A DNA stretch of 21,183 bases from Spirogloea muscicola (Eukaryota > Streptophyta > Zygnematophyceae > Spirogloeales > Spirogloeaceae): positions 223,402 to 244,584 of the forward strand of contig WELB01000189.1 in assembly GCA_009602725.1 (NCBI GenBank), written 5' to 3'. This document shows positions 1 through 13,262 of the stretch, one piece after another. The position numbers were made by a program, and so were the translations under genes. The notes under the pieces are model-generated. The model was given only the letters and a program-made list of their open reading frames with translations. It was not told the origin of the DNA and did not search any database. Each line of letters starts with the position of its first letter. Positions within the stretch are counted from its first letter, which is position 1.

Positions 1-277
1 CCCTCCTTTCCCCCACCCGCCCTCCCTCCTGCCATTGCTGCTTCCTCAACCTCCTCTAGCAGCTCCACAAGCGGTACAGGTCGAGTCGTCATGGCCCCCG
101 TCAGCACGGCTCTCCCCGCTGTGTGGCACCTCCAACCCTCCTTTCCCCCACCCGCCCTCCCTCCTGCCATTGCTGCTTCCTCAACCTCCTCTAGCAGCTC
201 CACAAGCGGTACCGGTCGAGTCGACATGGCCCCCGTCAGCACGGCTCCCCCCGCTCTGTGGCACCTCCGGCCCTCCT
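1..277 (+). repeat. 135-bp tandem repeat, two copies, at window edge
   Basis: Copy 1 is 1-135 and copy 2 is 136-270; a third copy starts at 271 but breaks off after seven bases. The copies differ at only a few positions. The period is a multiple of three, and frame 1 is open from the window edge to a TAG at 277-279, encoding a Pro/Ser/Ala-rich 45-residue repeat (PSFPPPALPPAIAASS, then a serine run, then MAPVSTA). Most differences between copies change the amino acid, so coding selection is not evident. It may be the end of a low-complexity gene or of a retroelement ORF cut by the window. I do not recognise it. Confidence 0.75.
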
Positions 278-1178: not shown

Positions 1179-1233
1179 CACCAGCTAGCTACTCGGATCT
1201 GCATCTCCTGTCTAGAGGTTACTGAGCGTTCCC

Positions 1234-1257
1234 TTTTCTCAATGGGCGAGCACTTTC
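1234..1257 (+). mobile_element. 24-nt micro-insertion of type-Z tail terminus with 5-bp TSD
   Basis: The insert (TTTTCTCAATGGG followed by CGAGCACTTTC) lies between TTCCC at 1229-1233 and TTCCC at 1258-1262. The related W copy 2 has GCGTTCCCTGG uninterrupted at about 2233-2243, so this is an insertion with an empty-site control. Only the extreme 3' end of the Z tail is present, without the hairpin. Confidence 0.75.
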
Positions 1258-1371
1258 TTCCCTGGTTGATGTCTTAGTCCTAGTCGTTCGCACTCTAGCT
1301 CCCTCAGACCTTGTCCATTCTTTTGGGCTGGCCCTTCCCAGCCACCAGTCAATCTGGCCGCGCTTTCTTCG

Positions 1372-1763: not shown

Positions 1764-2352
1764 TCAGTCGTGGGGCCTCGTCAGCTGTTCTCGGGCTCGC
1801 GCTCAATGGGCGAGCACTTTCTTCTCGCGCGAGGAGGCGGGCTACGCAGTCGGCCAAGCGGCGGGCGAGCACTTTCCTCTTGAAAAGGAACGGAAGTACT
1901 CGGACCACCCGGTGGGAGACGAGTTCGTTCCACTGGCAGTCGACGTGCACGGAGCCTTCGGCTCGAAATGGCTTGACTTGCTCCACCGCCTTGCGCGGCG
2001 TGCAGCGGCCCGCCGCATCGGGCAGCAGGGCGAGCAGCCCGGCTTCAACGTCGCCGGGTCCCTCGCTCAAGTCATCCGAATGCGTTTGGCCATCTCGATG
2101 CAGCGCTCCCTTGCCTTCGCTGTTCACTTGCGCGCAGGCCGAGCTTTGGCGGCGGCCTCCGGCTTCCGTCAGGGCGACGTCTTTCCGCCGGCTAGCTACT
2201 CAGACTTGCATCTCCTGACTAGAAGTTACTGCGCGTTCCCTGGCTGATGTCTTAGTCCAAGTCCTTTCGCGCACTCCGGCTCCTTCAGACCTTGTCCATT
2301 CCTTTGGGCTGGCCTTTCCCAGCCACCAGTCACTCTGGCCGCGCTTTCTTTT
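1764..2352 (+). pseudogene. LINE ORF C-terminus and 3' UTR, type W copy 2
   Basis: This is the longest type-W copy. The frame reads VVGPRQLFSGSR (1767-1802), is broken by a micro-insertion, then continues EEAGYAVGQAA and EKERKYSDHPVGDEFVPLAV, DVHGAFGSKWLDLL (about 1942-1983), AGSLAQVIRMRLAISMQRS and HLRAGRALAAASG. It ends SDLHLLTRSY at about 2229. The usual TGA is mutated to TGC there, extending the frame four codons to a TGA at 2245-2247. The UTR carries the W hairpin (GGGCTGG CCTTTC CCAGCC, about 2307-2326) and terminus and joins a type-Y end at about 2353. It is a dead, 5'-truncated copy of a non-LTR retrotransposon. Confidence 0.8.
1803..1823 (+). mobile_element. 21-nt micro-insertion of type-Z tail terminus with 7-bp TSD
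   Basis: The insert TCAATGGGCGAGCAC plus TTTCTT lies between CTCGCGC at 1796-1802 and CTCGCGC at 1824-1830. Removing the insert and one duplicate joins codons ending at 1802 to codons starting at 1831 in one open frame that carries recognisable LINE protein sequence on both sides. The insertion is therefore real and younger than the host copy. Confidence 0.8.
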
Positions 2353-8462: not shown

Positions 8463-8655
8463 CAAGAACAAAGTGCTCGCCCATTGCGGATAGGGGCTGG
8501 AAAAGCCAGCCCATAAATGAATGAACAGAGTACCAGAAGGGGGGCCAGGGGAAGCGCTAAGGAAAACAAGCACACAAAGAAGCAAAGCAGCTACGGATCA
8601 CTCAGTAACCCCTGCTAAGCAGCCGCAGATCAGAGATGCTAGGCTCCGAGATGCT
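8463..8655 (-). mobile_element. LINE 3' end, type Z, antisense (about 12 codons plus UTR)
   Basis: On the minus strand SISDLRLLSRGY and TGA are followed by the Z UTR (AGCGCTTCCCCTGG, GTACTCTGTTCATTC), a perfect hairpin GGGCTGG/CCAGCCC and the terminus CAATGGGCGAGCAC. It lies directly upstream of the plus-strand V copy. Confidence 0.75.
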
Positions 8656-9076
8656 ATGCTCCTTTTACACGGGGCCTTTGGCAGTGGCTGGTTTGATCTC
8701 CTCCAGCGGCTTGCCCGGGAGACCATTGAGCGGCGGCAGGGTTCGCCAGGCTTCAATGCTGCCGGCTCCCTCGCGCAGGTCTTTCGGATGAGGCTGGCGG
8801 TCTCGATGCAGCAATCTTTGGCTCATGCGGTCCACGCGCGCGCTGGCCGTGCTATGGCTACTGCTTCCGGGTCTCGGCAGAGCCGCTTTTCCTGCTTCGA
8901 GTTTTTCTGATTTGCTGTTGCTCACACGTGATTACTGAGCATCCATCTGCATCTCCCCCTGCACCGTCTTGCGCTTTGTAGTGTAGTACTTTTTCGGCAC
9001 TTTTTTCTTTGGCTTTGGACATTGTCCATTCTTTTTGGGTTGGCTCTGCCAGCCTCTTCTTTCTATGGGCTAGCTC
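8656..9076 (+). pseudogene. LINE ORF C-terminus and 3' UTR, type V
   Basis: The frame reads LLHGAFGSGWFDLLQRLARE, then FNAAGSLAQVFRMRLAVSMQ and HARAGRAMATASGSRQ. A frameshift near 8895-8910 precedes SDLLLLTRDY with TGA at 8936-8938. The UTR carries GTAGTGTAGTACTTTTTC, TTTGGCTTTGGACATTG, a weak hairpin (GGGTTGGC/GCCAGCC) and a degenerate terminus (CTATGGGCTAGC). The antisense tail at 672-772 is of the same type. Confidence 0.75.
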
Positions 9077-12755: not shown

Positions 12756-13185
12756 CAGTTCTTCCCGTTGGCCATCGACACACATGGGGCGCTGGGCGCT
12801 CGGTGGCTCGAGCTGCTCACCCAGCTCGCCCGCCACACCATCGCCCGGCGCTTCCATGGGGAGCCGGTTGACTTCCCTGCAGCCGGGTCGCTGGCGCAAG
12901 TGTATCGAATGCGCCTGGCCGTCTCGCTGCAGAGGTCCATGGCCCGGGCGCTGCACCTTCGTGCCGGCAGAGCCCTCGCTGCTGCCTCTGGCTCTGGCCA
13001 GGGGACCCACTTCCAGGAGCCCAGCATCTCTGATCTGCGGCTGCTTAGCAGGGGTTACTGAGTGTCTCGTAGCAGCTTTGTTTCTGTTACTTAGCGCTTC
13101 CCCTGGCCCCCTTCTCGTACTCTGTTCATTCTTTTTCGGGCTGGTTGTTCCAGCCCCTATTCTCAATGGGCGAGCACTTTCTTCT
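12756..13185 (+). pseudogene. LINE ORF C-terminus and complete 3' UTR, type Z
   Basis: This is the best-preserved C-terminus, open to its stop: LAIDTHGALGARWLELLTQL, HTIARRFHG, PAAGSLAQVYRMRLAVSLQR, HLRAGRALAAASGSGQGTHF, SISDLRLLSRGY with TGA at 13059-13061. The UTR (AGTGTCTCGTAGCAGC, AGCGCTTCCCCTGG, CTTCTCGTACTCTGTTC) leads to the hairpin GGGCTGG (13138-13144) / CCAGCCC (13150-13156) and the terminus TCAATGGGCGAGC (13163-13175). The intact frame and perfect hairpin suggest one of the younger insertions, but it is 5'-truncated and lacks the reverse transcriptase. Confidence 0.8.
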
Positions 13186-13186
13186 T

Positions 13187-13262
13187 TGCCAGCCCCTCTT
13201 CTCAATGGGCGAGCACCTTCTTCTTTTTCCCAGCCACCAGTCAATCTGGCCGCGCTTTCTCT
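13187..13262 (+). mobile_element. Two consecutive tail stubs (Z then W) cut at the hairpin
   Basis: Stub 1 begins CCAGCCCCTCTTCTC with terminus TCAATGGGCGAGC at 13202-13214. Stub 2 begins CCCAGCCACCAGTCAATCTG and runs to GGCCGCGCTTTC. Both start at the 3' arm of the hairpin and lack everything 5' of it. Confidence 0.7.

What the first reader, a model, noticed from the sequence alone, without database searches (positions are those of the whole stretch)
1796..1830. 21-nt LINE-tail insertion with 7-bp target-site duplication inside an older LINE ORF
CTCGCGC flanks a 21-nt insert that is only the extreme 3' end of the type-Z tail. Removing insert plus one duplicate restores a continuous reading frame (…LFSGSR joined to EEAGYAV…). 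A retrotransposition event this short is remarkable and usually invisible. It implies that reverse transcription began at the tail end and stopped after about 20 nt, near the base of the hairpin.
Basis: seen in the sequence. Interest (0 to 1): 0.8.

Follow-up and report, generated by a model that had tools for sequence, protein, structure and literature searches.

The report
Tiny stub of an aborted retrotransposon
A 21-letter scrap of a jumping gene's tail, flanked by a copied 7-letter target sequence, appears to be a real retrotransposition that stopped almost at once, and the same alga-like genome holds other such stubs, some with their untouched empty sites still present elsewhere.

Summary
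The structure is exact: CTCGCGC | TCAATGGGCGAGCACTTTCTT | CTCGCGC at 1796-1830. The insert is the 3' terminus of a LINE tail whose 22-nt core occurs 1906 times exactly in the 153-Mb source genome. It belongs to a class: of 111 candidate stubs, 26 carry a flanking repeat of 7 bp or more that is not only pyrimidine, against a mean of 1.5 and a maximum of 9 in 5000 flank shuffles; 85 do not. Inserts in 25 clear cases are 13-30 nt. Empty sites exist for other stubs: 659 places for a second stub in this window, and paralogues lacking the insert for 3 of 3 loci tested. Best explanation: ordinary target-primed reverse transcription that ended after about 20 nt. No empty site was found for this copy.

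The parts
1796..1802 (+). left copy of the 7-bp target-site duplication CTCGCGC
   Evidence: read directly; flank-shuffle control
1803..1823 (+). 21-nt micro-insert TCAATGGGCGAGCACTTTCTT, 3' terminus of the type-Z LINE tail
1824..1830 (+). right copy of the target-site duplication
1831..2350 (+).
1870..1884 (+). 15-nt tail-like insert CACTTTCCTCTTGAA in the same W fragment, preceded by GGGCGAG (1863-1869), letters found both in the target and in the tail; a multiple of three
   Evidence: absent from 29 of 29 aligned relatives, 0 of 28 by script; the 33-nt junction occurs once in the genome with up to 3 mismatches
1229..1263 (+). another stub: TTCCCT (1229-1234), 23-nt insert (1235-1257), TTCCCT (1258-1263)
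   Evidence: empty paralogues
2236..2241 (+). single TTCCCT in an empty paralogue of the 1229-1263 site
12774..13185 (+). 5'-truncated copy of the Z LINE: end of an ORF finishing LLSRGY, then the 3' UTR and full Z tail (13107-13185); 5' limit approximate
   Evidence: same ORF end before the tail in L017

Best explanation
The feature is a LINE insertion cut extremely short at its 5' end. A Z LINE protein nicked the target, the free DNA end primed on the CUU-rich 3' end of Z RNA, reverse transcription ended after about 20 nt, and the cDNA was joined to the other, staggered break, leaving a 7-bp duplication. Shown by sequence: the exact terminus, the duplication, the class-wide excess of duplications, and empty sites for other members. 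Inferred: the nick, the priming, the early end of synthesis and the joining. The short length looks like the low end of a broad truncation spectrum, not a special event.
For: Exact structure. 1906 exact cores, reversed-pattern control 0. 26 of 111 candidates with a repeat of 7 bp or more, a number reached in 0 of 5000 shuffles. Long repeats at other stubs: 18 bp at L110, 13 bp at L034, 12 bp at L240. Inserts 13-30 nt in 25 clear cases. 659 empty places for the stub at 1229-1263. Joined-flank test: the own loci of L034, L113 and L142 are longer than the query by 36, 27 and 33 nt, equal to insert plus duplication, while other contigs match across the junction without that length, 3 of 3 loci (coordinates and identities only, letters not seen). 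Flanks lying side by side elsewhere for 34 of 143 items, about 16 of them clean by eye. One W relative, L057, has a 23-nt reverse-strand stub with a 6-bp repeat; 24 of 28 placed relatives run through that site uninterrupted (20 by pattern, 4 more by eye).
Against: No empty site was found for this insert: its left flank is unique, and the joined query gave no uninterrupted match among the 41 matches returned, 40 of 409 candidates having been scored. 85 of 111 candidates lack such a repeat; one of the 26 (L112) has a repeat that is itself tail-like. 20 of 111 have hairpin-like letters just upstream and may be internally deleted long tails. Some insertions with an empty paralogue show no clear duplication (L080, L091). 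The left duplication meets the 5' boundary of the W homology, a coincidence left unexplained.
Confidence: 0.85

Rival explanations
1. The stub is the residue of a longer tail or LINE copy that later lost its 5' part by internal deletion.
For: Some candidates look like this: 20 of 111 have hairpin-like letters just upstream, e.g. L035 and L043.
Against: A deletion would have to end flush with the duplication again and again; 26 of 111 have a repeat of 7 bp or more near the stub's ends, and 5' ends differ from copy to copy.
Confidence: 0.06
2. The stub and the W fragment are one event: at the 5' end of W the reverse transcriptase jumped to the 3' end of a Z RNA, copied about 20 nt, and stopped.
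For: The stub abuts the 5' boundary of the W homology. Stubs that look like joined tail pieces occur elsewhere (L082, L128).
Against: It leaves the 7-bp repeat on both sides to chance (1.2% of swapped pairings).
Confidence: 0.06
3. A filler sequence was copied into a double-strand break during repair, without the LINE endonuclease.
For: Insertions without a clear duplication exist (L080, L091), and 6 of 25 clear cases carry extra 5' letters.
Against: The stubs were found by their 3' terminus, so ending there is partly selection; but the excess of duplications is not expected from filler.
Confidence: 0.03

Closest known systems
5'-truncated human L1 insertions made by target-primed reverse transcription (PMC2912911: found passages and section 12 read)
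   Same: 3' end present, variable 5' end, target-site duplication, occasional extra 5' letters
   Different: Here the insert is 13-30 nt of tail only. That paper reports 5' microhomology in nearly 80% of 5'-truncated L1; here it is 15 of 25, but 6 of 16 once the 9 cases favoured by the search word are left out (p = 0.19), so it is not established.
LINEs and SINEs whose 3' microsatellite-like end is related to the first base of the duplication (Bov-B and Sauria, PMC13295347: found passages)
   Same: The tail ends in CTT-like letters; the next letter is C in 94 of 111 stubs and in 92 of 100 sampled copies of all lengths
   Different: Another clade and repeat unit; that C may belong to the tail or to the target, the boundary is ambiguous here.
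LINEs with a restriction-like endonuclease (PMC4640811: found passages; five clades, HERO holding many without a fixed target)
   Same: The Z ORF end in L017 shows CECG...H...C, HDRLRD, RRVDLV and LLLDV, which I recall as typical; it matches protein P0010 at E = 4.9e-11, a name I recall as from a sponge
   Different: Membership not established: no Pfam hit, no solved relative (best E = 1.8), poor model of a relative, reverse transcriptase domain not fetched.

Membership tests
5'-truncated LINE insertion by target-primed reverse transcription | insert ends at the 3' terminus of the element | tested here: met
5'-truncated LINE insertion by target-primed reverse transcription | flanking target-site duplication beyond chance | tested here: met
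   7 bp here; class-wide control
5'-truncated LINE insertion by target-primed reverse transcription | empty site with one copy of the duplication and no insert | tested here: inconclusive
   not found for this copy; found for other stubs
5'-truncated LINE insertion by target-primed reverse transcription | dependence on element reverse transcriptase and endonuclease | not testable with these tools
   needs an assay
LINE with restriction-like endonuclease (donor of the tail) | PD-(D/E)xK endonuclease at the C-terminus | tested here: inconclusive
   remote protein match; Pfam and solved structures negative; model of relative P0004 has mean pLDDT 42
LINE with restriction-like endonuclease (donor of the tail) | reverse transcriptase domain in the same ORF | not tested

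The most novel reading that the evidence does not exclude
This genome holds a standing record of retrotransposition attempts that ended within the first 13-30 nt. From 22 nt upward, where it could be measured, ends occur at about the same rate per nucleotide as further along the tail; below 22 nt the rate is not known. If the pattern goes on downward, integration needs almost no cDNA and the enzyme has no protected start-up phase. L054, with a 9-bp repeat around only TCTTCT, hints that events may shrink to a duplication plus a few tail letters, invisible to repeat finders.
Probability: 0.4. Interest if true: 0.7.

Novelty: new variant of a known kind. Interest (0 to 1): 0.5.

Why it matters
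Very short LINE insertions are normally missed, because nothing about a 20-nt sequence tells where it came from. A distinctive, GC-rich tail terminus makes them countable here, so the length at which reverse transcription ends, and the shortest cDNA that can still be integrated, could be measured from a genome. It would also mean that part of the small indels with flanking repeats in genes may be failed retrotranspositions; the 15-nt insert at 1870-1884, a multiple of three, shows how easily one could pass as an ordinary indel.

Tried and rejected
Hairpin-specific stop: tested on 100 sampled copies, not significant. Frame restoration: not supported. Starts at 12 nt: one hit; its flanks, read, show no flush repeat. 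5' microhomology: 15 of 25, but 9 cases were favoured by the need for an intact search word; 6 of 16 without them, p = 0.19 (the 6 counted by hand), so not used as evidence. Donor protein: Pfam, solved structures and a model of a relative gave nothing usable; no fold search was run on the poor model. Rows dropped: L123 and L154 as duplicates of L101 before the count; L112 before the table of 25, because its repeat is itself tail-like. The stub list and the sample of 100 overlap in at least two loci (L031/L207, L079/L225). Papers: in the listings I saw no report of LINE stubs this short by title or abstract start, and in those no study of Spirogloea retrotransposons; the library holds open papers only and most listed papers were not opened. 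Found passages were read in PMC2912911 (plus section 12), PMC4640811, PMC13009371, PMC9915684 and PMC13295347; no paper was read whole.

Full report
What is there. At 1796-1830 the window reads CTCGCGC, then TCAATGGGCGAGCACTTTCTT, then CTCGCGC. The 21 nt are the last letters of a tail that stands in full at 13107-13185, after a LINE reading frame ending LLSRGY. The window is contig C189, 223402-244584, of an unnamed 153-Mb assembly in 471 contigs. Ten proteins match the Z reading frame; eight bear names of the form SM000...S, which I recall as gene names of the alga Spirogloea muscicola. The two highest identities are 94% over 29% and 89% over 34% of the query. The species name is likely but rests on recall.

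Size of the family. The 22-nt core has 1906 exact places (947 + 959). With the four preceding C positions required to be other letters, 17 places remain exactly and 376 with up to 2 mismatches anywhere. Thirteen places begin at GGGCGAG with the six preceding letters all unlike the tail; read, several of these 13 are altered long tails rather than stubs. The reversed-pattern control was 0 in all four searches.

Truncation lengths. The first 100 of the 1906 places were taken as listed (L001-L030, L158-L227). The tail match ended at 22-38 nt in 16, at 39-99 nt in 35, and at 100 nt or more in 49. The hazard was 0.4-1.6% per nt, without clear trend by eye; KS p = 0.62 against a uniform spread of the 51. 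The sample was drawn with a 22-nt word and from contigs C1-C4 only, so shorter stubs are not counted in it.

Duplications. In that sample, 12 of 51 copies shorter than 100 nt have a flanking repeat of 7 bp or more, against 112 of 2550 swapped pairings (4.4%); for long copies, whose 5' boundary is not known, 6 of 49 against 83 of 2352. In the stub list (100 records, less 2 duplicates, plus 13 = 111), repeats of 7 bp or more that are not only pyrimidine number 26; 5000 shuffles gave a mean of 1.53 and a maximum of 9. 85 of 111 do not reach this mark. Twenty-five of the 26 were tabulated: insert lengths 13-30 nt, extra 5' letters in 6.

Empty sites. Of 143 items, 34 had a place in the fetched sequence where both flanks lie side by side; about 16 were clean by eye, the rest mostly tail-to-tail, self or weak matches. 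The junction of the stub at 1235-1257 is found uninterrupted at 659 places within 2 mismatches, and in this window at 2236-2241. Joined flanks of L034, L113 and L142 matched their own loci with 36, 27 and 33 extra bases, equal to insert plus duplication, and matched other contigs across the junction without that extra length: up to 93% identity for L142, 79-80% for L113, 73-76% for L034. Only coordinates were seen for those contigs. L080 and L091 have empty paralogues but no clear duplication.

The locus itself. None of 29 aligned relatives of the right-hand fragment W has the 21 nt at this place (0 of 28 placed by script). But their homology begins at about GCTCG, and the 33 nt ending with the left repeat are unique. 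Part of the left side, 1752-1772, matches relatives exactly over 21 nt in the direction opposite to W, so the site lies between two LINE fragments of opposite direction, with some 25 nt of unknown origin between them. The claim of a restored frame falls. Chance is an unlikely source of the 7-bp repeat (1.2% of swapped pairings), but the empty allele is missing.

A second insert in the same fragment. The 15 nt at 1870-1884 are absent from the 29 relatives, and the junction occurs only here within 3 mismatches. The seven letters before it, GGGCGAG, belong both to the target and to the tail, so the join may have used that match; this is inference, and no clear duplication is seen.

Mechanism. Shown: the terminus, the excess of duplications, empty sites for other stubs, variable 5' ends. 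Inferred: nick, priming on the CUU-rich RNA end, early end of synthesis, joining. Human L1 truncations are treated in the same terms in PMC2912911 (passages and section 12 read), and a role of 3' repeats in priming is proposed for Bov-B in PMC13295347 (passages read). The C after TTTCTT is as common in long copies (44 of 49) as in short ones (48 of 51), so it is a property of the family and may be tail rather than target.

The donor. The end of the Z ORF resembles the restriction-like endonuclease part of such LINEs (motifs recalled; match to P0010 at E = 4.9e-11). Pfam and solved structures gave nothing. A model of P0004, a relative 40% identical to Z, had mean pLDDT 42 and decides nothing. 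Membership stays open.

Verdict. A very short insertion that most likely arose by an ordinary mechanism, one of a recurring class in this genome. The interest lies in the class, which lets one measure how soon reverse transcription can end and still leave a mark.

Noticed in passing
window 1870-1884: 15-nt tail-like insert in the W fragment, absent from 29 aligned relatives; target and tail share GGGCGAG at the join
   Followed up: yes
window 1229-1263: another stub with a 6-bp repeat; 659 uninterrupted places genome-wide
   Followed up: yes
L054 and L047: same target, TCTTTGGCT repeated in both; L047 holds a 25-nt stub, L054 only TCTTCT
   Followed up: partly
L082, L128, L132, L142: stubs that look like two joined tail pieces, as if the reverse transcriptase changed template
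   Followed up: no
L057: 23-nt reverse-strand stub with a 6-bp repeat near the same place in a W relative
   Followed up: partly
window 8464-8950: LINE 3' end on the minus strand followed by body sequence in the other direction, as in twin priming
   Followed up: no
window 13145-13225: a full Z tail directly followed by a second, shorter tail of another variant
   Followed up: no
window 1-270: 135-nt unit duplicated in tandem, 96% identical
   Followed up: no
L229, L230, L233: the other (W-type) hairpin tail also occurs as short pieces with flanking repeats of 6-7 bp by eye (3 of the 7 places fetched of 29 listed)
   Followed up: partly
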